A model generated the notes under the pieces. It ran no database searches and had not been told where the DNA came from. It was given only the letters and a program-made list of their open reading frames with translations. Source: a virus. Taken from it: a DNA stretch of 35,077 nucleotides. Of the stretch, positions 8,333-34,938 are shown piece after piece. Numbering within the stretch: the first letter of the stretch is position 1; the number at the start of each line of letters is the position of its first letter. The translations under genes and the position numbers were made by a program. Where the stretch lies: IMG/VR virus record IMGVR_UViG_3300026519_000037, positions 1-35,077 of that record, one strand, 5' to 3'.

Positions 8333-8527
8333 ATGCCACTCATTAAAGTCAAAGCTGTCGAGGGCCGCGTTGCGCGGGAAGCCCCCGATGGGCCTTTTAT
8401 CCCGCATGACCGATTTACGGCGGTGCGAGAAACAAACTACATCCGACGCCTGATAGAAGTCCATGAGGACTTGATCCAGCAACCGAAAACCGAAGCCCCG
8501 TCCACCCCGAACAAGGAGAAGAAGTAA
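8333..8527 (+). CDS. Small DUF2635/Mu gp38-like protein
   Basis: This 64-residue protein is encoded directly before the sheath gene, whose ATG overlaps its TAA. The sequence follows the DUF2635 pattern: MPLIKVKAVEGRVARE, then a proline-containing stretch and Y-I-R-R near residue 42. In Mu-like phages a gene of this family sits just upstream of the sheath gene and its product is a small tail-assembly protein of unclear role. Ribosome site AGGAG precedes the start. Confidence 0.65.
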   Translation: MPLIKVKAVEGRVAREAPDGPFIPHDRFTAVRETNYIRRLIEVHEDLIQQPKTEAPSTPNKEKK

Positions 8528-10020
8528 TGGGTATCAATTCACTGCGGGACGGGTTTGTGTCCCTCTGCTTCGACCCAAGCCTCAACGTATCCGGCGAAGG
8601 ATGCCGAGTGGTTGTGGAAGGGCAGCATTTTGGGACAGCCACGGATGACGTGCTCATCCGGGTTACGTCAACACGCGATCTGAACACGCTGTTTGGGGCG
8701 GGCTCTGTCCTCGCAACCGGTCTTGCAACCGCTCTTGGAAGCTGCGGGAGCGGTGTTGAGATCTTTGCAGTCCCGCGCCCTGACGCGGTTGGTTCGACCG
8801 CCGCTGTCTACACGCTGACTATCACCAACGCCGCCACGTCCGACGGGCGTGTGGATATCTATTGGGGCGAAGCTCGGTGGAATATCAGCGTGGCCGTGGC
8901 CACTGGCGACACGCCTGCCATGGTGGCCGCCGCTATCCAGGCTGCTGTTCCGGCGGATTTCCCGTATGCCGCCACGGTGGCCGCCGGCGTTGTCACCCTC
9001 ACCGCCAAGAACGCTGGCACTGTTGGGAACTTCCTGAACCCGCAAATCAACTGGCACGGGCGCAACAACTATCTGCCCGGCGCAACCACGATCACGGTCG
9101 CCCAGACAACTGTCGGCGCAGGCGATCCGGCCCCGCTCGATTACGCCGCTGTTTTGGGCGGGTGCTGTGTCTGCTCTTTTGTGATGCTTTACGGCAACAC
9201 TGCGTGGCAAGATGGTGTCCTCACCTACCTGGGCGATGCGTGGTCCTGCGATAAGCCGCAATGCTTTGGCCACGGTTACACCTATAACGCCGGTTCGTTG
9301 GGTACGATTCTGGCCACGGACACCAACTCGGCAACGCTTAGCCGAATGGCTCACTGTCCAGAAGACCCGAACTTCCCGTGGCTGAAAGTGGCAAACTACG
9401 GAGCAGTTTCTGCTTGCCGCACGCTGGACAATCCCGAAATCAGCATCCAAGGCCCGAACCTTGGCGTGCTGGAGCAGGTTCGGCACCCCGAATACTGCAC
9501 CCACTGCTGGACATTCGACGAGCAAAACCAACTCCGCGACGGTGGGTTTGTTGTCACGGTGCCAGTCTCCGGCGGCCAAGGCGCACTGACATCCCCGATG
9601 GTGACAAATGACATCACTAACAACCGTTACGATTCCGAGGGGCGGCTCAACCTGACGTTCCGTGATGTGTCCGCGCGGCGTCTCGCAGCAAAGACTGCCG
9701 CTGTGCTGGCCGAAGAGCTCCAGGCTTTCAACGGCTTGGGCTACTTCAGTGAGAACACCGACATCCGGGCCGGTGTTCAGGGCTCCAACCGCAAGCTCAT
9801 CCTTGGGCAGATCCGGGCTTGGGCTAAGGAAAATGTTGGTGTCCTGTTCTCGGAATTCGACAACCTGGACAAAGACTTGACGCTGACTGACGACTTTGCC
9901 GCTGCGCCGCGCTGTCAAGGCCAGCCCGGCAAGCTCTACCTAAACATTGTCTACCGCCCGCCGGTCCGGACAACAAATATCGTGGTGAACGCGGCCCCGA
10001 AGCTGCTCGATAACTGCTAA
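8527..10020 (+). CDS. Tail sheath protein (Mu gpL-like)
   Basis: This 497-residue protein lies where the contractile sheath is encoded in Mu-like phages. Features include N-terminal MGINSLRDGFVSLCFDPS, a nucleating GQHFGTATDDVLIRVTSTRDLNTLFGAGS segment and a C-terminal domain around VLAEELQAFNGLGYFSENTDIR, ending in VYRPPVRTTNIVVNAA, typical of sheath C termini. The sheath contracts around the tube to drive it into the host envelope. The middle domain (about residues 90-210) is Gly/Ala-rich and variable. Several cysteines are present (GGCCVCSF, CDKPQCFG). Confidence 0.88.
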   Translation: MGINSLRDGFVSLCFDPSLNVSGEGCRVVVEGQHFGTATDDVLIRVTSTRDLNTLFGAGSVLATGLATALGSCGSGVEIFAVPRPDAVGSTAAVYTLTITNAATSDGRVDIYWGEARWNISVAVATGDTPAMVAAAIQAAVPADFPYAATVAAGVVTLTAKNAGTVGNFLNPQINWHGRNNYLPGATTITVAQTTVGAGDPAPLDYAAVLGGCCVCSFVMLYGNTAWQDGVLTYLGDAWSCDKPQCFGHGYTYNAGSLGTILATDTNSATLSRMAHCPEDPNFPWLKVANYGAVSACRTLDNPEISIQGPNLGVLEQVRHPEYCTHCWTFDEQNQLRDGGFVVTVPVSGGQGALTSPMVTNDITNNRYDSEGRLNLTFRDVSARRLAAKTAAVLAEELQAFNGLGYFSENTDIRAGVQGSNRKLILGQIRAWAKENVGVLFSEFDNLDKDLTLTDDFAAAPRCQGQPGKLYLNIVYRPPVRTTNIVVNAAPKLLDNC

Positions 10021-25505: not shown

Positions 25506-27512
25506 TTAATCGGCCTCGGCCCAATTACGCCCTGTTCCCACATCCATAATAATCGGAACCTTGATTTGCGGCACCGCATTTTCCATAACGTATTTCAGCT
25601 CACGCCAAGCATCGGTGTCGATTGTATCCACTTCCACAAAGTCTAACTCGTCGTGCACGGTCATCCGGGGCATCCCGCAAGCATCCTCATCAAATAAGCC
25701 AGCCTCGTAGGCCTTAACCATAGCGGCCTTCATCACATCCGCCGCACCACCCTGCAATTTCCTATTCAGGGCTTTATGAGTGAACGCCCTTTCAATATTG
25801 TACACCCCCCATTTCTGCTTTGCCACACTATAGGGGTAGGCACCCGAGCGTTCCCCATCGTGGTACCCGCTCCTGGACCAGGAATCAAAATCCGACCGAC
25901 GGCCTAAAACTGTTTCGACATAACCTTTTGTGTGAACTTCATTCGAGGCCGCTTCCATGGTGGCCCGAACAAACGGCGCAGCTTCATGGTAAGCCTGAAA
26001 TAGTTCGGCACCTTTCGACTGACCAAGCGCCAGAGATGTAATCAATTTATTTTTCGACATCCCATAAATAAGCCCGAAGTTAATTGTTTTAGCTGGCCGC
26101 CGCTTCAATTCGACGCCGGTTAATTTCTTGACAAGTGCAATTGTGAGCTCGTGGTAATCCGTTAGCGGGTCATTGACAAAATGGGCCCGAAGCTCTTCGC
26201 TTCCGGCCCCTACCGCGTGGTGCGCCAACATCCTGTACTCAATTTGAGAATAATCCATTTTAACGTGAAGGCCGCGTGGCGCAGCGAAAGCGGCCCGCAC
26301 TAGCTTGCCCTCGGCTGTCCGTACCGGGATGTTCTGCAAATTAGGATCCGACGAGGAAAAGCGGCCAGAGCGTGCGCCGTGCGCGTCGCCTCGAAGAGGG
26401 TGGAAGCTTCCGTAGAGTTTTCCGCCAACCTGCTTATCCAGAATATACCCTTTAATGAACGTTCCGCGTATTTTGGTTAGTTTTCTATGCTCCAGAATTA
26501 AATCGCAAAGTGGGTTGTCAATATTCTCCAGTATGTCGGCAGCGAAAGAAACCCTACCTGTTTTGGGGGACACAGGGTGCGGTAGCCCGATAGCGGTGAA
26601 TGCCGTTTTTATGGTGGCCGCCGCTGCTGGGTTAACAGCTACACCTGTCAGTTCTTGCATAGATTTCTCTAGCGCTTCAAGCGGCTGCCCAAGGTCCTCG
26701 TAAATCCTCTCGGCCGCCTCCACATCGACTGGCATCCCAGCCATACGCATATCTACGAGTAGCGGAATAAGCCTGCACTCTAATGAGAACAAATCGAGGG
26801 CTCCGCGTTCACTCAACTTGGGCCACTGCGCCTCGAGTATCCTTATAGGCAGAGACGCATCAGCTTCCGCATACGGACCTACCAAGGACACGGGGGCCTT
26901 ATAGAGCCACTTCCTTTGCTTATCTGTTGGGGCCAGACCATTCCAAAGGTTAAGCCATTCGTAAAGCTGCGGGCTTTCCTTTCCAAGACCAAGGTGGCGC
27001 TGGGCCAGCGCCTCGAGGCTAACACTTGGCGTCTCGCTGTTTAATAGCGCCTCGGCATACTGCACATCGTAGTATGGCCCCTGGATTGAGACACCTTCCC
27101 ACCGCAGCCAACCGACATCGTATACCAGATTGGCCCCGACTTTCGGTTTGTTATTATCTAGAACAGAACTAAGCCACCTTAGCACCTGCTGCGGGTCCAT
27201 ATTCATTTCAGGCTGCGTTTCGTGTCTCATTGGAAAATACCAATGGGATCCGTCCTCGACGGAAATAGATACACCTAACAGGTGGCCTTTTCCGCGCCCC
27301 CACCCCGGCCCGGCGTCGTTCAGCTCTGGGTCGAATGTCTCGGTGTCTAGTCCTATTACTTTAGCAGCCGATAGATTTGGGAAGTCGGCTGGCGGTAGCC
27401 AGCCAGTTTCCGGTATAGATGGCATCGGCCCCCACTCGCGCGGCCCTTTCTTGCCCGACCCTCGGATAACGGGCTTATCTTCCCAAAAGAGACCAATGGA
27501 ATCGTTTCTCAT
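25506..27512 (-). CDS. Family A DNA polymerase with 3'-5' exonuclease domain
   Basis: This 668-residue protein carries all catalytic signatures. The proofreading exonuclease has Asp56 and Glu58 (GLDTETF), Asp132 (NLVYDVGWL) and Tyr214/Asp218 (YAEADASL). The polymerase has motif A with Asp420 (MDYSQIEYR), motif B with Arg471, Lys475, Phe479 and Tyr483 (RRPAKTINFGLIYG) and motif C His620-Asp621-Glu622 (VHDELDF). There is no N-terminal 5'-3' exonuclease domain. Phe at 479 predicts the usual discrimination against dideoxynucleotides. It is the replicative polymerase of the phage. Its ATG overlaps the clamp-like gene's stop, and the modification enzyme DpdA is encoded one gene further upstream. 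Confidence 0.94.
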   Translation of the reverse strand: MRNDSIGLFWEDKPVIRGSGKKGPREWGPMPSIPETGWLPPADFPNLSAAKVIGLDTETFDPELNDAGPGWGRGKGHLLGVSISVEDGSHWYFPMRHETQPEMNMDPQQVLRWLSSVLDNNKPKVGANLVYDVGWLRWEGVSIQGPYYDVQYAEALLNSETPSVSLEALAQRHLGLGKESPQLYEWLNLWNGLAPTDKQRKWLYKAPVSLVGPYAEADASLPIRILEAQWPKLSERGALDLFSLECRLIPLLVDMRMAGMPVDVEAAERIYEDLGQPLEALEKSMQELTGVAVNPAAAATIKTAFTAIGLPHPVSPKTGRVSFAADILENIDNPLCDLILEHRKLTKIRGTFIKGYILDKQVGGKLYGSFHPLRGDAHGARSGRFSSSDPNLQNIPVRTAEGKLVRAAFAAPRGLHVKMDYSQIEYRMLAHHAVGAGSEELRAHFVNDPLTDYHELTIALVKKLTGVELKRRPAKTINFGLIYGMSKNKLITSLALGQSKGAELFQAYHEAAPFVRATMEAASNEVHTKGYVETVLGRRSDFDSWSRSGYHDGERSGAYPYSVAKQKWGVYNIERAFTHKALNRKLQGGAADVMKAAMVKAYEAGLFDEDACGMPRMTVHDELDFVEVDTIDTDAWRELKYVMENAVPQIKVPIIMDVGTGRNWAEAD

Positions 27513-28474
27513 GCCCGTAGCCCCAAAATAACCCCCCGCATATTCCCCCTTTGGAAGGCCACCGGGTTCGGGTACTCGGTGAAACTGGCCAACTCCGCGG
27601 CGCTTTCGATGAGTCTTAGCATATGCAGGTTATAGCACCCGTCTGGCATCCCCTCGACAGCGTAGCTAGCGCCAACCTCGTCCTCTATGCTTGTCCTAAT
27701 GACACCGTCCCGTATCCAAATACGCCCATCTTTCTTGTCAAGAAAGTCTGCAAGCGTCTCGAGGCCGACAAACAGGTCGGGTGGGATAGGCGCAAGAGGC
27801 TCTTTGCCACCGGCGATAACTTCGCGCAACGTCGGCGGCCAGCTTAGGGAATAAAGCAGAGTGTGTATCCACCTCCCATCCTTATAATGGAATGTGGCGG
27901 AGTTTTTGGAAATCTGTATCGCGGTAGGTGGCTGTTCGATAAGCAACATCTGCTTAACAGCCTCAACCGGTATATTTATCTCTTCGGGGAACTCGGTGCC
28001 CAAGAAGTATTCCACAAGGCAAACATTATTTGTTGCGAACGCGCTCCGACCGCTAAATAGAATCCCGTTTGTCCAGGGGCGGCTCGCATCGTCCCCAATA
28101 AAGGGTTTCAGGGCTGAAATAGCCCTTAGGAAGTGATCCCCATCCAGGGGGACAACCGTCCCCTCAGGTTCTTGGTGCGGCATCTCCGTGTCTATCAGCT
28201 CTATATAGGCCCGCATATTACCGCTTTGGATACAAATTCTGCCTGTTTTTGTCTTGTGAATTCCCACCTTATCGCTGCACCTATTCAAAGCAGCCCCGAA
28301 CGGCGCGGCTTTTGGGTTGCAATCCACGGGGAATTCTATAGGGCTCGATAAGGTTATGACGCCGTTGAACGCTCTTATAGTGCCGCCCTGAATTGCGTAA
28401 TGTGTCATCTCGGGCACGGATGTTTTACCAACAAGCCCGCCCCGAACGAATTTTAGTGCTCCCGAATTATCCAT
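27509..28474 (-). CDS. Probable DNA polymerase sliding clamp (DnaN-like)
   Basis: This 321-residue protein has repeated short strand-strand-helix units and motifs seen in beta clamps: THYAIQGGTIRAFNGVITLSS near the start, FATNNVCLVEYFLG in the middle and IPVEAVKQMLLI. No enzymatic motif is visible. A clamp of about 320-370 residues encoded next to a family A polymerase is known in several phage groups. It would hold the polymerase on DNA. It overlaps the polymerase gene by ATGA and the dpdA stop by TGATG, so all three are probably translated in a coupled way. The fold is inferred from pattern, so a structural comparison would be decisive. Confidence 0.65.
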   Translation of the reverse strand: MDNSGALKFVRGGLVGKTSVPEMTHYAIQGGTIRAFNGVITLSSPIEFPVDCNPKAAPFGAALNRCSDKVGIHKTKTGRICIQSGNMRAYIELIDTEMPHQEPEGTVVPLDGDHFLRAISALKPFIGDDASRPWTNGILFSGRSAFATNNVCLVEYFLGTEFPEEINIPVEAVKQMLLIEQPPTAIQISKNSATFHYKDGRWIHTLLYSLSWPPTLREVIAGGKEPLAPIPPDLFVGLETLADFLDKKDGRIWIRDGVIRTSIEDEVGASYAVEGMPDGCYNLHMLRLIESAAELASFTEYPNPVAFQRGNMRGVILGLRA

Positions 28475-29409
28475 CAGAATAGCTGTTCCTGCCAGTGTAT
28501 TTCCTGTATGCGGGCTTTCCGCTCGTTTAGCTTTTCGTTCAACCGAGCGTATGTCCAGAGGTTATAGGCGAACCGCGCATAAGGAACCTCTGCTAACCTC
28601 TTGGGGTCGAAGCCCAGATCACGAAGCATCGACTCGAAATATGCAGCCTCTACCGGTGGCATTGTCGTAAAATGCTTCCTGGCTGTATGCCGGGCCGGGG
28701 ACTTCGAAGAGATTTTAATGCTCTCCCCATCCGGGGTCCATACGCCGCCGAAGGAGGCGGCCTGTACCCACGTAGAGCTGTCCACGCTCCACCAGCCATA
28801 TCTCTCCATTATGGGTATAGACGTAGTAGCAAAGCCGTGGACTTTGACTTTAGGCCTACCCGCGCCGTCTGTTAGATACCTTTCCCAAAGCCGATCCATC
28901 CATGTAATCGCTTGCGTGCTACTGATAGCTGCAACGCCACCGATACAAATGTACTCGTAGTTGGCAACATACCACTCTAAAACCTTTTCGTCCTCGTGAA
29001 TATGATATGTTGGGAGCGCCTGGATTCCTTGACTCTCCATCACTTTTAGATTATGGTAAGTCTGTTCGGCGTCTCCAATAACGTCGAGCCCGGCTATGAC
29101 CGGGATACCGTCGTCAATCAAGAAAATGTCTTCATACTTCTTAATGAAGTGGCAATATTGATTTATATCAATCTCGGCGCCAGCGTGCTTAGCCGAAAAA
29201 GCGCCCGAGTCTAGAAATATCTTTCTGCCTGTGGCCCTTATCTGCTGGGCTATTCTGTCCTTTCCGATATAATGGTAGGACTCGAGTATGTGCGGGGTTT
29301 CTCTGGCAATCTTCTTTTCGTGGTCTGTCAGATACCTTTCATATGTCGGTTGGCCGGGCTGCATACTGTTGGTGAACACGGCGGCGGCGTACATCTTGAT
29401 AGGATCCAT
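28474..29409 (-). CDS. dpdA: DpdA-like DNA 7-deazaguanine transglycosylase
   Basis: This 311-residue protein belongs to the TGT-related DpdA family, which swaps guanine in DNA for a 7-deazaguanine base. Diagnostic stretches are KIFLDSGAFSAKHAG (Asp67), AGLDVIGD (Asp109), YICIGGVAA, VKVHGFATTS and WWSVDSSTW (Asp210). Asp67 in DSGAFS corresponds in context to the DSGGF motif of tRNA-guanine transglycosylases; Asp210 sits where the nucleophile would be expected (inference). The CxC...C...H zinc site of bacterial TGT is absent, as the protein is short. It follows folE, queD, queC and queE and precedes the clamp and polymerase genes. preQ0 or a derivative would be its substrate. Confidence 0.85.
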   Translation of the reverse strand: MDPIKMYAAAVFTNSMQPGQPTYERYLTDHEKKIARETPHILESYHYIGKDRIAQQIRATGRKIFLDSGAFSAKHAGAEIDINQYCHFIKKYEDIFLIDDGIPVIAGLDVIGDAEQTYHNLKVMESQGIQALPTYHIHEDEKVLEWYVANYEYICIGGVAAISSTQAITWMDRLWERYLTDGAGRPKVKVHGFATTSIPIMERYGWWSVDSSTWVQAASFGGVWTPDGESIKISSKSPARHTARKHFTTMPPVEAAYFESMLRDLGFDPKRLAEVPYARFAYNLWTYARLNEKLNERKARIQEIHWQEQLF

Positions 29410-29438
29410 AATTCAGCCCCTGTGGCTCTCCTGTTAGT

Positions 29439-29468
29439 GGCCGCCGGTACTTGGCCCTACCGGCGGCC
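29439..29468 (-). terminator. Hairpin between folE and dpdA
   Basis: A perfect 11-bp inverted repeat (GGCCGCCGGTA / TACCGGCGGCC) with an 8-base loop lies in the 107-base gap between folE and dpdA. No T run follows in the leftward direction. It could act as an attenuator or mRNA stabiliser separating precursor synthesis genes from the dpdA-clamp-polymerase unit. Nothing else is seen in the gap apart from a GGGG-type ribosome site near the dpdA start. Confidence 0.45.
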
Positions 29469-29516
29469 CTTAGGCCCCACCGCGCGCCCGTGGCAGCGCT
29501 GGTAGCCCCTACCTGC

Positions 29517-30086
29517 TTACAACGTAGCGGGCGGCACCGCAAGGTGCATGAATTCCTGACGCAACGACGGCTTTGTAAGGAATTCGCCCAGCATGGACGA
29601 GGTGGTTGTGATTGTCCCGCGGACTTGCACGCCCCGAGATTCCATGCACATGTGTCGGCAATGGAGTACAACGCCGACTCCCATGGGCCTGTCGAGCGAG
29701 GTTTCCAGCGCAGCGGCAATCTGGCTTGTTAACCGTTCTTGCACTTGGAGGCGCCTCGAAAAAGCGTCTACAACCCGCGCCAGCTTGGAAAGCCCAACAA
29801 CCCTATTTCTGGGCAAATAGCCGACTGTTGCTACGCCCCAGATTGTCTCCAAGTGATGCTCGCATTTGGAATACACCGGGATATTGCCTACAGCGACTAT
29901 CCCGTTGTACTTCTCAGCGCCATCCTCAAAAGACTTAAACAGCCCACCGATATCAACATCGTACCCACTCGTAAAGAAATCCCAAGCCTTAGCGGCCCTT
30001 TCTGGCGTTTCGGACAAGCCCTCTCTGTCGTAAGTGTTGGGCTCTGCGGCCTTGAGCAGCGCTCGAACTGCTTCTGCGGTGCTCAC
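29517..30086 (-). CDS. folE: GTP cyclohydrolase I
   Basis: This 189-residue enzyme converts GTP to 7,8-dihydroneopterin triphosphate, the first step of both folate and 7-deazaguanine synthesis. Family motifs are clear: EGLSETPERAAKAW (residues 22-35), the zinc ligands Cys75 and His78 in KCEHHLE and Cys147 in CRHMCMESRGV, and SKLARVVDAFSRRLQVQERLT. It starts with GTG at 30086, overlapping the queD stop in GTGA. Together with queD, queC and queE this makes a complete preQ0 route, so the enzyme serves base modification here rather than folate. Confidence 0.95.
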   Translation of the reverse strand: MSTAEAVRALLKAAEPNTYDREGLSETPERAAKAWDFFTSGYDVDIGGLFKSFEDGAEKYNGIVAVGNIPVYSKCEHHLETIWGVATVGYLPRNRVVGLSKLARVVDAFSRRLQVQERLTSQIAAALETSLDRPMGVGVVLHCRHMCMESRGVQVRGTITTTSSMLGEFLTKPSLRQEFMHLAVPPATL

Positions 30087-30526
30087 GGTGTCACCATTGC
30101 GCTATTAGCGGTGTGCTCCGCCACTTCCACTTTCACGATGGTTGCGCGCGGGTAAAAACCGGCATCTTTCATCCATTGTGTGGCCACCTGAAAAATCAGC
30201 TCGGCCCAAGCCTCGCACCCGACAGCAGGCACAAGCACAATCTCGGCCAAGCCCTTTTCATCGAGCTCCAAGAGTGTTGGGATTGCTGGGTCGTCCTCGG
30301 CCACAAGCAACTTATGGTCGAAAGTGTTCTCGAGCATAGCCCAGAGCGATTTCAGGCCCCCAAAATCCACAACAAACCCACTCCTGTCAAGCTCCTCGGC
30401 GGCAAAAGTGAAGGTAATGGCCAGCGCATAGCCGTGCAGAAACTTGCAATGGCTTTCAGCTTTGTGATTACGGTAGGCTATCGAAAGCCCCCTGTCGTGT
30501 GGGTAGTGCTTTGTGGAATAGTACAT
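30083..30526 (-). CDS. queD: 6-carboxytetrahydropterin synthase
   Basis: This 147-residue T-fold enzyme converts dihydroneopterin triphosphate to 6-carboxy-tetrahydropterin. It has the catalytic Cys27 in SHCKFLHGYAL, VVDFGGLKSLWAMLENTFDHKLL with Asp70/His71 and a C-terminal VKVEVAEHT with Glu. The usual LHGH is LHGY, and the upstream AAH histidine motif is not obvious, so the zinc site differs from the E. coli enzyme. From memory, LHGY forms are found in other phage and marine QueD proteins. TAGGAGG, overlapping the queC stop, precedes the start. Confidence 0.88.
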   Translation of the reverse strand: MYYSTKHYPHDRGLSIAYRNHKAESHCKFLHGYALAITFTFAAEELDRSGFVVDFGGLKSLWAMLENTFDHKLLVAEDDPAIPTLLELDEKGLAEIVLVPAVGCEAWAELIFQVATQWMKDAGFYPRATIVKVEVAEHTANSAMVTP

Positions 30527-30535
30527 AGTTTCCTC

Positions 30536-31258
30536 CTAGTAAAGTCCAATTGGATAGTAGTTCCGGAGGCGCGCAAGTTTTGTCCTCCGCAAATAGGTAT
30601 CGAAGCCTTCTCTGCGCAAGGCGCAGGCAGGACATGTCCCACAGCCCTTGCCCCAATAGTTCTCGACAAGCTTGTCTACTTTGTCGGATGAAGTGGATTG
30701 GCAAGAAATTGTCGAGCTCCTGGCAAACTCAAACATGCCCAGCTTGTCCGCCATTGCCCAAACCTCCTGCTTGTATTTGCCGAGCAGCGGTGTTTCAATA
30801 CGGATAGGTATGGGGTTCCCGGCTCTCAGCGCTTTACGAAACGCCCGGACGAACCGTGGCTTACTATCGGGCGAGATTATCTCGTCCCTACCGCCGATAC
30901 CAGTCACAACAGCCTCCGCCCCAACTGTGTCGGCGTACCCATGAGCAGCGGCCATGAAGATCATATTGCGGTTTGGGACATACCTGTTACCGATGCCCGG
31001 CGCCCTCCCCTCGTCGCTGAACGCCATATCATTGTCGGTCATCGCCGATTTTGTCATCTCGGCGACAAAATCCAGCTTAAATACCCGAAAAGACAACGCT
31101 TTGAAGTGCTGCGCGATGGATACGGCGGCCCGGAGTTCTTCTCGGTTACGCTGCCCGTAGTCAAAAGCTATCATGTACAAAACATCGTACTTAGCCGCAG
31201 CCCAGCCAGCAGCCACCGCGCTGTCCAGTCCGCCCGAGATTAAAACTACGGCCGACAT
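30536..31258 (-). CDS. queC: 7-cyano-7-deazaguanine (preQ0) synthase
   Basis: This 240-residue enzyme converts 7-carboxy-7-deazaguanine to preQ0 with ATP and ammonia. It has the PP-loop SGGLDS (residues 8-13), AFDYGQRNREEL, VPNRNMIFMAAAHGYAD, VVTGIGGRDE and the zinc cysteines Cys186, Cys206, Cys209 and Cys212 (GCGTCPACALRREGF). I use ATG 31258, which overlaps the queE stop in ATGA. No amidotransferase domain is fused, unlike the Gat-QueC used for archaeosine-type DNA bases in some phages. The pathway visible here therefore ends at preQ0. Confidence 0.94.
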   Translation of the reverse strand: MSAVVLISGGLDSAVAAGWAAAKYDVLYMIAFDYGQRNREELRAAVSIAQHFKALSFRVFKLDFVAEMTKSAMTDNDMAFSDEGRAPGIGNRYVPNRNMIFMAAAHGYADTVGAEAVVTGIGGRDEIISPDSKPRFVRAFRKALRAGNPIPIRIETPLLGKYKQEVWAMADKLGMFEFARSSTISCQSTSSDKVDKLVENYWGKGCGTCPACALRREGFDTYLRRTKLARLRNYYPIGLY

Positions 31259-32004
31259 CACCCAACCCCCCAGATTTTGTGGGCCTGAATACCGGCAAGT
31301 AGCATGTATTTACGACGGCTGAGCACGGCCTCGATAATCATGTTAGTACTCTTGTCGAGTTCCGCCGTACTCCCGGTATCTTCGGGGAAGAGGTACACAG
31401 GCCCCTTGTAATCCGACCGGGGGCGGGAAACCTTGGCGCCGACTGGCAAGGGGTGATCGAGCACGCGCCTTGGGATTCCGTCGTCCAGCAGCGGCTCCGC
31501 GGCCGACACCGGGTACTTGTAGCAGTTTGCCAATTTTTCAAGCATTTCGGATATTCTGGCTGTCTTTGGAGCCAGCGTGATGTGCAACTGCCCCCGCCGC
31601 ACTAGTACCGCCAGATTGGCCCCATCCGGAATAATCGGATCCAGTTTTCCATTGCTTTCCACCTGAACAATCAGCCCAAGCTCGAGGAGGCCCATAATCA
31701 GTGGGAAGATGTTTTGCCGAAAGGGTTCGCCGCCTGTCAAAACAGCGAGCTTTACGGCACTGTTTTCCTTCCAGTATTCGGAAACCACCCGGAGTACCTC
31801 TGCGAGGGCCATGTTCTCCGCGCCGTCGGTGTATTCTGTATCGCAGAGGGGGCATTGCAGGTTACAACCCGAAAGTCGTATAAAGATTGCTGGGACCCCC
31901 TGCATTGTTCCTTCGCCTTGAACTGTTGGGAAGATATCGAAAATATCCAGCTTAGACCCGTCCGACACCGCCCGTGGGAGAGGCGCTTGCGTATTCTGTT
32001 CCAT
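31258..32004 (-). CDS. queE: 7-carboxy-7-deazaguanine synthase (radical SAM)
   Basis: This 248-residue enzyme turns 6-carboxy-tetrahydropterin into 7-carboxy-7-deazaguanine. It has FPTVQGEGTMQGVPAIFIR at residues 25-43, the radical SAM cluster motif Cys47, Cys51, Cys54 (SGCNLQCPLCDTEYT) and TGGEP at 90-94. AAGGA lies 7 bases upstream of ATG 32004. It is the first gene of the queE-queC-queD-folE run, all joined by overlaps or by a ribosome site inside the previous stop region. Confidence 0.93.
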   Translation of the reverse strand: MEQNTQAPLPRAVSDGSKLDIFDIFPTVQGEGTMQGVPAIFIRLSGCNLQCPLCDTEYTDGAENMALAEVLRVVSEYWKENSAVKLAVLTGGEPFRQNIFPLIMGLLELGLIVQVESNGKLDPIIPDGANLAVLVRRGQLHITLAPKTARISEMLEKLANCYKYPVSAAEPLLDDGIPRRVLDHPLPVGAKVSRPRSDYKGPVYLFPEDTGSTAELDKSTNMIIEAVLSRRKYMLLAGIQAHKIWGVG

Positions 32005-32061: not shown

Positions 32062-32793
32062 TTAGGATTCCTCAGCTTCCGGGACAGCCAGTTCGTTTGC
32101 GGCCCGGTGATAAGCGCCGACCTCCGGGAAATGGGGCGCCAGCGCGGCGAGATCTTCCTTGGTGGCATGGCCCTGTGGCTGGATACCGTGAAACTGGCGC
32201 CAACGGGAGTACTTCCCGCGAACGTTCCCAAGGGCAAGGCCGCGCGACTCCGCAAGCGGAAGGGCCTCCTGGATTTTGCAAGGACGCTTGGCGATCGCGG
32301 AAATCTCATCGAAGACTTCCATGGCCGCGAAATTCTTGGTGCCCGGAAGCGGGTAGGTGTACCCGTTCTGAACTACACGGTCCACGGGCGGCACCCGCTT
32401 CTTCTTTGCCCTCTTCGGGCCAAGGGCCTTCTTCATTTCCCGGATGGCCTTCGCAATCCCCTGCCGGTGCGTAGTGGCCACTGCCTTCGCGGTGGTCAGC
32501 TCTTCCTTTTCCTGTTGGACTTTTTTCAAGGAAGCCGCTCCCTCCTCAACAGCCTTGCGGGCCTCGGCCTGCGCGTCGTCCTCCGGGTCCAGCGCCTTTT
32601 GGTAGGCTTTTGCCTCTTTCAGGAACTTCGACCAATCGCGCGCCTGAGCAACAGCGAGCTTCCGACGCTCTATAATGTCTTCTTCAGCTGCCTTGGCTTC
32701 GACAAGGTCCGCCTCCAGCGCCTCCAGATCTTCCTGGGTCGGGGTAGGTGCCTCAACTTGGTCTTCTTGCCCCGTTACGTTTTCGTTGTCCAT
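32062..32793 (-). CDS. Coiled-coil protein, possible DNA-binding C terminus
   Basis: This 243-residue protein has AGGAG before ATG 32793. Residues about 18-125 form a long charged coiled coil (LEALEADLVEAKAAEEDIIE; KKVQQEKEELTTAKAV). A basic linker follows (GPKRAKKKRVPP). Residues 160-210 (FDEISAIAKRPCKIQEALPL then GNVRGKYSRWRQFHG) look like a helix-turn-helix type module found in some phage early proteins. The family is unknown to me. Location between helicase and que genes suggests a DNA transaction or regulatory role. Confidence 0.6.
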   Translation of the reverse strand: MDNENVTGQEDQVEAPTPTQEDLEALEADLVEAKAAEEDIIERRKLAVAQARDWSKFLKEAKAYQKALDPEDDAQAEARKAVEEGAASLKKVQQEKEELTTAKAVATTHRQGIAKAIREMKKALGPKRAKKKRVPPVDRVVQNGYTYPLPGTKNFAAMEVFDEISAIAKRPCKIQEALPLAESRGLALGNVRGKYSRWRQFHGIQPQGHATKEDLAALAPHFPEVGAYHRAANELAVPEAEES

Positions 32794-33144: not shown

Positions 33145-34938
33145 CTAGAACGGTATGTCTTCGTAGTCCATAGGGCTGGCTCTATATACTGGCGTCGCGG
33201 TGGCCAGCGGGTCCACTTCCGGGATGGGCGGGGGCGGGCCACCGAGCTCCGGCGGAAGCTCAAAACCTGTACCGTTCATATCGTAAGCTGCTATCTCTTG
33301 GTACCGTGTATCCACCCTCACTTTAATGAAGACGGGTTTCTGGATCCCGGCTATAGCTTCGACAACTTCCGCGCAGGTGGTCGGTAGCTCGCCTTGGCCC
33401 CCGTGCAGCTTCCACCACTGTTCTGCTTTTATCCTTGGATAGGATTTGGGCGGGTGTTCCACGCATATCCATGTGTAGTGGTAGTTGAACCCACTCCGGT
33501 ACCCAACTTTAACCGTGTCCCTCTTGCCGTTCCGTCCCTCATTAACCGAAGCCACCATTTCGTGAACAGTTTGAATAATAAACTCAGGCTCGGGCGGCTT
33601 GGTGTTCAGCGCGACAAGCTTGGCCGTACTGGCTTTTTCCTTTAGTCGCTCAGGCGGTGGGAATTCGTGGCCGCACATGCCGCAAATAGGCTTGCTAATA
33701 TGCTGGATATAGCTGCATGTGGGGCAGGTGCGCGCCGGTGGCGAGCCCTTTTTGGAGCCCCGCCGCTTAGGTAGCGCGGGCGCGTTTATAGGCCCTAGGC
33801 GCTCTGTATTGCCCACGAAATCCAAGACCTTACAGTCTTGCTTCGGGCCAGCAGCTATAGCGGCTAACCTTCCCTCCTTTGTCTGTAGATCGAAGCCATC
33901 GGCAAAGACTGGCCGTGTGCCCCTACCAATGATTTGAACGTGTAGGGCGGTACTTCTCGTTAGACGCAGTAAAACAAGCAAGTCAATGGGGGCATGGTCG
34001 AAGCCGGTGGTCAGCACCCCCATATTCGTAACGCCCCAAAGTTCCCCGGACCGCAGCCTCCGGAGCACGTCATCTCTGTCCTTTGTCTTGCTGTGGACAG
34101 CTTCAACCGGAAATCCTTTATCCGTGAACATCTCGGCCAGTAATTCGCTATCGTCGATGCTCTGGGCAAATATCAGGCAGGACTTTCTGCCTTCCTCTCT
34201 GGCCACCCTTACGGTAGTGTCCACGGCCCGCTCCAGCAAGTTCTGGTCCCGCATGGCCTCCGATGTTTCCTTACTGTTGAAATCGCCGCCTGTTAGTTTA
34301 ATGTTTTCGCTGTCCAGGTAGAAGCCGGGGTTGATTGGGTGTAGCGGGGACAAGTAACCGTTTTCAATCAGCTCGACAAACGCCTCGCCGCTGCTTAGGT
34401 CGTAGGCAGTTTCATCAAACAAACCTCCATCCAACAGGCTGCCCATTCCCATGCGGTAGCCTGTCGCTGTAAATCCTATAACAATCAGGTTTGGATTTAC
34501 ATTCCGGAGCTCCTTAATGAATTTTACATAGCTTGCGTTAGCCTTGTCGCTAACCATATGCGCCTCGTCGATTATCATAAAATCGACCCGTTTAAATAGC
34601 GGCGCCTTCTTAGCCACCGACATGATTCCGCAGAACGTAACTTGCTGGCTGATATCTCGGCGCTTTAGCCCAGCGCTATAAATCCCAGCCGGTGCCCCCG
34701 GCCAGAATTCCATAAGTGTGTCGTAGTTCCCGCGGATAAGCTCTTTCGAGTGCGTCACCTGGAGTATCCGTGTGAATGGATATTTCGCAAGGATGGCCCA
34801 GATGAACATGGCCATCTGCAAAGACTTACCAACACCGGTAGGCATTAGGACCAACGGATTTTTGTCGGGGTGCTGGTGGACATAGTTCCAAAGGGCGGTA
34901 TGCGCCGCTTCCTGATAATCGCGCGGGATCTTTCTCAT
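33145..34938 (-). CDS. Superfamily 2 DNA helicase with zinc ribbon
   Basis: This 597-residue protein has SF2 helicase motifs: Walker A MPTGVGKS (residues 32-39), DEAH box IIDEAH (124-127), TATG (157-160) and motif VI QIIGRGTRP (335-343). A zinc ribbon with Cys405, Cys408, Cys419, Cys422 (CPTCSY...CGMCGHE) follows. The C-terminal 170 residues (PKSYPRIKAEQWWKLHGG) are an OB-like or primase-associated region seen in related phage helicases. It would unwind DNA in phage replication or repair. It overlaps no gene but starts 1 base before the previous stop. Confidence 0.9.
   Translation of the reverse strand: MRKIPRDYQEAAHTALWNYVHQHPDKNPLVLMPTGVGKSLQMAMFIWAILAKYPFTRILQVTHSKELIRGNYDTLMEFWPGAPAGIYSAGLKRRDISQQVTFCGIMSVAKKAPLFKRVDFMIIDEAHMVSDKANASYVKFIKELRNVNPNLIVIGFTATGYRMGMGSLLDGGLFDETAYDLSSGEAFVELIENGYLSPLHPINPGFYLDSENIKLTGGDFNSKETSEAMRDQNLLERAVDTTVRVAREEGRKSCLIFAQSIDDSELLAEMFTDKGFPVEAVHSKTKDRDDVLRRLRSGELWGVTNMGVLTTGFDHAPIDLLVLLRLTRSTALHVQIIGRGTRPVFADGFDLQTKEGRLAAIAAGPKQDCKVLDFVGNTERLGPINAPALPKRRGSKKGSPPARTCPTCSYIQHISKPICGMCGHEFPPPERLKEKASTAKLVALNTKPPEPEFIIQTVHEMVASVNEGRNGKRDTVKVGYRSGFNYHYTWICVEHPPKSYPRIKAEQWWKLHGGQGELPTTCAEVVEAIAGIQKPVFIKVRVDTRYQEIAAYDMNGTGFELPPELGGPPPPIPEVDPLATATPVYRASPMDYEDIPF

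What the first reader, a model, noticed from the sequence alone, without database searches (positions are those of the whole stretch)
28474..32004. Complete preQ0 biosynthesis plus DpdA: a 7-deazaguanine DNA modification cassette
folE, queD, queC and queE give every dedicated step from GTP to preQ0, and dpdA encodes the transglycosylase that inserts a 7-deazaguanine into DNA. All five are co-directional and contiguous. In characterised phages this set produces genomes where part or all of the guanine is replaced, protecting against restriction. The presence of the whole de novo pathway suggests the phage does not rely on the host queuosine pathway.
Basis: partly seen in the sequence, partly recalled or inferred. 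Interest (0 to 1): 0.85.

Follow-up and report, generated by a model that had tools for sequence, protein, structure and literature searches.

The report
Phage preQ0 DNA-modification gene cassette
An uncultured contractile-tailed phage carries a complete gene set for making a modified guanine and putting it into its own DNA, a known type of anti-restriction armour; its insertion enzyme, like about a hundred relatives, ends in a short tail that looks like a handle for the phage's replication clamp.

Summary
On the minus strand at 28474-32004 lie queE, queC, queD, folE and dpdA, followed without a gap by a sliding clamp and a family-A DNA polymerase. DpdA keeps the invariant residues of phage DpdA and folds like a tRNA-guanine transglycosylase. 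QueC has no Gat domain and no QueF was seen, so the best prediction is dPreQ0, as in phage CAjan. The set is a new member of a well-studied kind: the same gene order occurs throughout Queuovirinae and in Synechococcus phage Ssp-JY38, which also has the closest tail sheath. The window phage is a myovirus fragment.

Two points appear unreported in the papers I could search. (1) DpdA ends in a disordered, variable tail whose last residues, Leu-Phe, are kept in 92 of 99 relatives (L[FY] near the end in all 99), with all six Leu codons in use. It resembles a clamp-binding motif (window: QEQLF), and dpdA abuts the clamp gene. I propose that DpdA rides on the clamp; this is inferred, not shown. (2) QueD belongs to a subfamily lacking two of the three zinc-binding histidines of canonical QueD, also found in bacterial folE/queE/queC neighbourhoods.

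The parts
31258..32004 (-). [quoted passage not shown]
   Evidence: PHROG 2076 E 2.7e-34; solved QueE 6nhl/4njg E 1e-11 to 1e-12
30536..31261 (-). queC, preQ0 synthase, 241 aa, stand-alone (no glutamine amidotransferase domain), zinc cysteines CGTCPAC kept
   Evidence: Pfam QueC 1.1e-53; TIGR00364 168.9 bits, cut-off 150.3; length compared with Gat-QueC of relatives, about 460-475 aa
30083..30526 (-). queD, 6-carboxytetrahydropterin synthase homologue of the HGY subfamily, 147 aa; catalytic C27, D70-H71, E137 kept
   Evidence: Pfam PTPS 1.8e-16; alignments; model pLDDT 94.7, matches QueD/PTPS structures
30428..30454 (-). QueD motif SHCKFLHGY (residues 25-33): canonical zinc ligand His of HGH replaced by Tyr (Y33); the other canonical ligand is Y18
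   Evidence: alignment with E. coli, 9g and CAjan QueD; 38-member subfamily alignment
29517..30086 (-). folE, GTP cyclohydrolase I, 189 aa, GTG start
   Evidence: Pfam 1.9e-59, TIGR00063 above cut-off
28474..29409 (-). dpdA, DNA-guanine transglycosylase, 311 aa; D67, H191 and D210 kept
   Evidence: PHROG 887 E 2.9e-69; 48% identical to MiCath DpdA, 47.6% to CAjan; alignments A2 and A4; model and PDB fold match to TGT
28477..28491 (-). dpdA codons for the C-terminal QEQLF, proposed clamp-binding tail
   Evidence: Leu-Phe conservation in 99 relatives; disordered in the model
27509..28474 (-). phage sliding clamp (DNA polymerase processivity factor), 321 aa, start overlaps the dpdA stop by one base
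   Evidence: PHROG 947 E 1.3e-59; family profile matches solved beta clamps, best E 5e-07
25506..27512 (-). family-A DNA polymerase with 3'-5' exonuclease domain, 668 aa
   Evidence: Pfam DNA_pol_A 2.2e-70
33145..34938 (-). superfamily-2 helicase, in its usual place upstream of the cassette
   Evidence: PHROG 16 E 9.2e-81; same place in relatives

Best explanation
A self-contained 7-deazaguanine DNA-modification cassette. FolE, QueD, QueE and QueC turn GTP into preQ0; DpdA swaps preQ0 for part of the guanines in phage DNA; with no Gat-QueC, ArcS or QueF seen, the product should be dPreQ0, which blocks many restriction enzymes. Shown here: genes, homology, fold, active-site conservation, gene order. 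Inferred from relatives: preQ0 product, DNA as substrate, protection. Further inference (about 0.6 likely): the C-terminal QEQLF tail of DpdA docks on the phage sliding clamp made from the next gene, so that modification follows the replication fork and DNA is favoured over RNA.
For: Family matches of all five proteins. DpdA 48% identical over 97% to MiCath and 47.6% to CAjan DpdA, all residues invariant in 19 and 49 relatives by definition kept, TGT fold. Same gene order in CAjan, 9g, PaMx25 and 16 others, and in Ssp-JY38. dPreQ0 measured for the same gene set in CAjan and Rosebush, lost on dpdA deletion (PMC6884629). For the clamp link: Leu-Phe at 0-2 residues from the end in 92/99 DpdA with a clamp gene in the locus, L[FY] within 8 in 99/99, against 15/3046 other ORFs and 0 of about 490 FolE/QueC/QueE/QueD/clamp; tail columns 296-306 mostly 2.3-3.5 bits of entropy, then 0.00 and 0.14; only residues 306-311 under pLDDT 50; all six Leu and both Phe codons used, and 33/33 kept when the clamp gene is over 100 nt away; clamp-binding consensus is QxxLF (PMC12309361); the downstream protein is a beta-clamp homologue.
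Against: No experiment on this phage; the genome is incomplete (35 kb of perhaps 52-66 kb, judging by relatives), so a further modifying gene may be missing. QueD lacks two canonical zinc ligands. Clamp link: only 13 of 99 tails match QxxL[FY] exactly; most are [VI]QELF, with Gln one place later; mycobacteriophage DpdA (Quesadilla, Rinkes) lack any such tail; homologues are not independent, so counts are not probabilities; no complex could be modelled.
Confidence: 0.8

Rival explanations
1. The DNA carries another 7-deazaguanine (dG+, dADG, dPreQ1 or 7-carboxy-7-deazaguanine) because an enzyme outside the fragment, or the host, changes preQ0, or because QueC works only partly.
For: The window is a linear fragment of 35,077 bases. 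Close relatives differ: of 96 loci 52 have Gat-QueC and 43 stand-alone QueC, and the state changes at least 14 times on the DpdA tree. Gene content does not always predict the product (Dp-1, 7-11, nt-1 in PMC6884629).
Against: In these phages the deciding enzyme is QueC or Gat-QueC inside the cassette, and here QueC is stand-alone; no QueF, ArcS or amidotransferase among the window proteins scanned and none annotated in the fetched part of Ssp-JY38.
Confidence: 0.2
2. The cassette serves host tRNA queuosine or folate rather than phage DNA.
For: The first four enzymes are shared with queuosine (and FolE with folate) synthesis; phages with que genes but no dpdA exist (PMC6884629).
Against: DpdA belongs to the phage DNA-modifying group, not tRNA TGT; the TGT family model TIGR00430 finds nothing in the window; DpdA has no zinc cysteine cluster of TGT; it sits with the replication genes.
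Confidence: 0.03
3. The cassette is inactive because QueD lost its metal site; the host or an uptake route supplies preQ0.
For: Y18 and Y33 replace two of three canonical zinc histidines; CAjan, EC151, PSTCR4 and Vid5 carry preQ0-transporter-like genes.
Against: The subfamily is widespread, with C27, H31, D70, H71 and E137 invariant in 38 members, stands in place of QueD in many intact cassettes and beside folE, queE or queC in bacteria; the reading frame is intact.
Confidence: 0.07
4. The conserved DpdA tail is not a clamp handle but a degradation tag, a dimer contact or a handle for another replisome protein.
For: No binding data; the commonest form [VI]QELF is not the textbook spacing.
Against: A contact inside the enzyme would not be modelled as disordered; a second DpdA group without a phage clamp carries the textbook host-clamp form (QADLL, QEDLF, QVDMF, QAELF) near its end in 7 of 13 clusters against 4 of 603 other ORFs; in phi38:2, whose DpdA lacks the tail, two neighbouring proteins end in SVNLF and QVNLF in an operon with a clamp gene.
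Confidence: 0.35

Closest known systems
dPreQ0 cassette of Escherichia phage CAjan (Seuratvirus, Queuovirinae)
   Same: queE, stand-alone queC, queD, folE, dpdA, clamp, polymerase in the same order; DpdA 47.6% identical, same tail end LF
   Different: CAjan has a canonical HGH QueD, a preQ0-transporter-like gene, a family-B polymerase gene (as annotated) and a non-contractile tail; window phage is a myovirus with PolA
dG+ cassette of Enterobacteria phage 9g (Nonagvirus)
   Same: same gene order and DpdA group (43% identity)
   Different: 9g has Gat-QueC (archaeosine) and a canonical QueD
Synechococcus phages Ssp-JY38 and Yong-L2-223
   Same: 66% identical tail sheath, portal 42.5%; Ssp-JY38 has the same cassette (stand-alone QueC), PolA and orientation; QueE 41%, DpdA 40%, PolA 49%
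   Different: Ssp-JY38 QueD has F at the first ligand but keeps HGH; DpdA ends DPVLF; no paper on either phage was found
Mycobacterium phage Rosebush-type dPreQ0 cassette (read in PMC6884629; Quesadilla and Rinkes inspected here)
   Same: DpdA plus the four preQ0 genes, dPreQ0 product
   Different: other gene order, distant DpdA; in Quesadilla and Rinkes no Leu-Phe tail and no clamp gene in the stretch read
Bacterial clamp-binding motifs (PolC QLSLF, DnaE QMGLF of B. subtilis)
   Same: short tail motif ending L-F; QMGLF and QxxLF occur in some DpdA (PMC12309361)
   Different: binding by DpdA not tested; most DpdA have Gln one position later

Membership tests
Phage DpdA (9g/CAjan group) | Sequence similarity to 9g/CAjan DpdA | tested here: met
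   43-48% identity over 94-97%
Phage DpdA (9g/CAjan group) | Conserved His196 of 9g DpdA, absent from DpdA2 | tested here: met
   aligned His191, invariant in 49 sequences (PMC6884629)
Phage DpdA (9g/CAjan group) | TGT-like fold | tested here: met
   model pLDDT 94; the 50 best-listed PDB matches are TGTs, prob 1.00, E from 7.7e-06, TM about 0.5
Phage DpdA (9g/CAjan group) | Inserts 7-deazaguanine into DNA | not testable with these tools
   needs expression and LC-MS
Group 2 (dPreQ0) cassettes of Hutinet et al. 2019 | DpdA, FolE, QueD, QueE and QueC all present | tested here: met
Group 2 (dPreQ0) cassettes of Hutinet et al. 2019 | No amidotransferase (Gat-QueC, ArcS) or QueF | tested here: inconclusive
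   none in the window, but the genome is a fragment
Canonical QueD (PTPS-I) | Catalytic Cys, Asp-His pair and Glu | tested here: met
   C27, D70-H71, E137
Canonical QueD (PTPS-I) | Three zinc-binding His (E. coli H16, H31, H33) | tested here: not met
   Y18, H31, Y33 in the window; so filed as a QueD-like subfamily that stands in the QueD place, not as canonical QueD
Queuovirinae | Cassette with clamp and polymerase in the Queuovirinae order | tested here: met
Queuovirinae | Siphovirus (non-contractile) structural genes | tested here: not met
   tail sheath and baseplate genes; closest structural relatives are Ssp-JY38 and Agrobacterium phage Milano
Sliding-clamp client | Terminal or exposed QxxL[FL]-type motif in a disordered segment | tested here: met
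   window QEQLF; disordered; conserved
Sliding-clamp client | Binds the clamp through that motif | not testable with these tools
   needs peptide binding or a modelled complex

The most novel reading that the evidence does not exclude
Phage DpdA enzymes are sliding-clamp clients: a C-terminal clamp-binding tail (LF-end with phage-encoded clamps, QADLL/QEDLF-like with host clamps, or a tail carried by a partner protein) couples 7-deazaguanine insertion to replication and helps a tRNA-enzyme relative choose DNA.
Probability: 0.55. Interest if true: 0.65.

Novelty: new member of a known kind. Interest (0 to 1): 0.42.

Why it matters
The cassette itself adds one more phage, a contractile-tailed one related to cyanophage Ssp-JY38, to the dPreQ0 group, and shows that the modification module travels with clamp and polymerase between unrelated virion types. 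The family-wide tail, if it binds the clamp, would give the first concrete account of how DpdA finds newly made phage DNA, and it is cheap to test in the CAjan system. The QueD subfamily without two zinc ligands would change how QueD is recognised in genomes and asks what metal, if any, it uses.

Tried and rejected
Close-relative scan of viral contigs with the window DpdA alone found nothing; megablast of the window against phages found nothing. Rejected: tRNA TGT (no TIGR00430 match); defence-system membership (PADLOC gave only weak QueC/QatC matches); DpoZ 2-aminoadenine polymerase (261 bits, cut-off 500). Considered and rejected: that Leu-Phe is kept because the dpdA end overlaps the clamp start (33/33 kept at over 100 nt distance; all Leu codons used). 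First thought that distant DpdA lack the motif; the Lg3-like group corrected this, while mycobacteriophage DpdA do lack it. Ruled out as clamp evidence: internal QLSLL in the family-B polymerases, position unexplained. Coordinates of the models were not available, so the geometry of a replacement metal site in QueD could not be measured. Profile search of solved structures with DpdA by sequence gave nothing. A scan with phi38:2 DpdA found no relative.
Full report
What is there. The window is an IMG/VR virus record of 35,077 bases with no end repeats, so probably a fragment. Its minus strand from 34938 to 25506 reads helicase, two small ORFs, queE, queC, queD, folE, dpdA, sliding clamp, family-A DNA polymerase. 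Gene ends overlap or nearly so, apart from 107 nt between folE and dpdA; dpdA and the clamp share one base. The plus-strand part holds portal, head protease, major head protein, tail sheath, baseplate hub and wedge, endolysin and spanin, so the phage is a myovirus.

Identity of DpdA. It is 48% identical to MiCath and 47.6% to CAjan DpdA. In 19 and 49 aligned relatives the invariant residues include D67 (DSGAFSA), H191 (by the alignment, His196 of 9g) and D210. The AlphaFold2 model has mean pLDDT 94 and pTM 0.90; all 50 best-listed PDB matches are tRNA-guanine transglycosylases. TM-scores are only about 0.5 and DpdA is shorter than TGT. The protein has only two cysteines, so it cannot form the zinc site that I know from TGTs (direct reading of the sequence).

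Predicted product. Hutinet et al. [quoted passage not shown] replacing QueC by Gat-QueC gives dG+. The window QueC is 241 aa with no Gat domain. Among 96 related loci, Gat-QueC and stand-alone QueC occur in 52 and 43, QueD types assort freely with them, and both traits change many times on the DpdA tree (at least 14 and 17 changes). The product can thus not be read from DpdA kinship, only from the local QueC. dPreQ0 is the best prediction, with the reserve that the genome is incomplete.

Kin. The same gene order occurs in 20 phage records inspected, from E. coli, Pseudomonas, Vibrio, Rhizobium, Burkholderia, Acinetobacter and others. The closest phage as a whole is Synechococcus phage Ssp-JY38: sheath 66%, portal 42.5%, and the same cassette with PolA in the same orientation. 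Agrobacterium phage Milano shares the structural genes (sheath 52%) but no cassette gene was found in the 36 kb read. The replication and modification genes therefore form a module that has been exchanged between virion types.

The DpdA tail. The long last helix of DpdA ends at residue 305; residues 306-311 are the only segment under pLDDT 50. Columns 296-306 are among the most variable of the alignment (mostly 2.3-3.5 bits; family mean 1.24), yet the last two, Leu310-Phe311, have 0.00 and 0.14 bits. Of 99 complete DpdA with a clamp gene in the locus, 92 end in LF within 0-2 residues and all 99 have L[FY] within the last 8; other ORFs do so in 15 of 3046 cases; none of about 490 neighbouring FolE, QueC, QueE, QueD and clamp proteins does. 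After removing sequences over 75% alike, 40 of 42 have it. Six Leu codons and both Phe codons are used, and all 33 DpdA whose clamp gene lies over 100 nt away keep it, so the constraint is on the protein and not on the start of the clamp gene. Relatedness of the sequences means these counts are not probabilities.

Why a clamp handle. The clamp-binding motif of bacteria is QL[S/D]LF or more generally QxxLF, with weaker xxxLF forms; B. subtilis PolC carries it at its very C-terminus, DnaE has QMGLF (PMC12309361). The window has QEQLF, S0112 QMGLF, ply2008005c QMELF; the commonest form is [VI]QELF, with Gln one place later. The protein made from the next gene is a beta-clamp homologue. A second DpdA group, seen in Lg3-like prophage loci without a clamp gene, has near its end the forms expected for the host clamp, such as QADLL, QEDLF, QVDMF and QAELF, in 7 of 13 clusters against 4 of 603 other ORFs. 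In Cellulophaga phage phi38:2 DpdA lacks the tail, but two neighbouring proteins, gp51 (ParB-like) and gp53, end in SVNLF and QVNLF, in an operon with a clamp gene. Mycobacteriophage DpdA have no such tail. I found no paper linking DpdA with a sliding clamp in the library searched; subscription papers are mostly not held. Binding is inferred, not shown.

QueD. In E. coli, 9g and CAjan the zinc ligands are H16, H31 and H33 (E. coli numbering; ligand roles from general knowledge). The window has Tyr, His, Tyr; the catalytic Cys, Asp-His and Glu remain. The subfamily (F/Y/L at the first ligand, HGY at the third) includes MiCath, R7M, HD01, Erebus, RHEph04, PBPA162 and BcepGomr, and at least 80 bacterial loci, mostly Alphaproteobacteria, often beside folE and in some beside queE or queC. 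Ssp-JY38 is intermediate (Phe at the first, HGH at the third). The model is a confident QueD/PTPS fold. A replacement metal site with the invariant H26 and H31 is possible but was not measured. 9g QueD, which rescues E. coli (PMC6884629), is of the canonical type, so activity of this type is inferred from gene context only.

Verdict. The cassette is real, very probably functional and of a known kind. Its interest lies in two testable, apparently unreported family-wide features rather than in the cassette itself.

Noticed in passing
window 28477-28491 and loci L103-L182: DpdA ends in a conserved Leu-Phe after a variable disordered tail, resembling a sliding-clamp-binding motif.
   Followed up: yes
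window 30083-30526; bacterial loci L023-L101: QueD subfamily lacking two canonical zinc histidines, in phages and in bacteria beside folE, queE or queC.
   Followed up: partly
L184 3248-3901 and 4621-5085 (Cellulophaga phage phi38:2 gp53, gp51): Two proteins next to dpdA end in QVNLF and SVNLF while DpdA itself lacks the tail; gp53 is a cysteine-rich protein of unknown function.
   Followed up: partly
L191-L232 (Lg3-like DpdA in prophage contigs): A second DpdA group with QADLL, QEDLF, QVDMF-like motifs near the C-terminus and no que genes or phage clamp looked for beyond the clamp profile.
   Followed up: partly
window 8527-10020 and 802-2061: Structural module of the Ssp-JY38/Yong-L2-223 and Agrobacterium Milano/7-7-1 type, joined to a Queuovirinae-type replication and modification module.
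   Followed up: partly
window 25506-27512 compared with relatives: The polymerase after the clamp is family A in the window, ply2008005c, VpKK5, S0112 and Ssp-JY38 but is annotated as family B in CAjan, 9g and most others: the replicase was exchanged in place.
   Followed up: partly
window 32062-32793: Conserved-position ORF between helicase and queE, 243 aa, matching only PHROGs of unknown function; relatives annotate FtrA-like transcriptional activators there.
   Followed up: no
L025 and L058 (Alphaproteobacteria and Verrucomicrobiales MAG contigs): Contigs binned as bacterial that carry dpdA with folE and queD (L058 also queE, queC and a clamp gene), probably phage or prophage.
   Followed up: no
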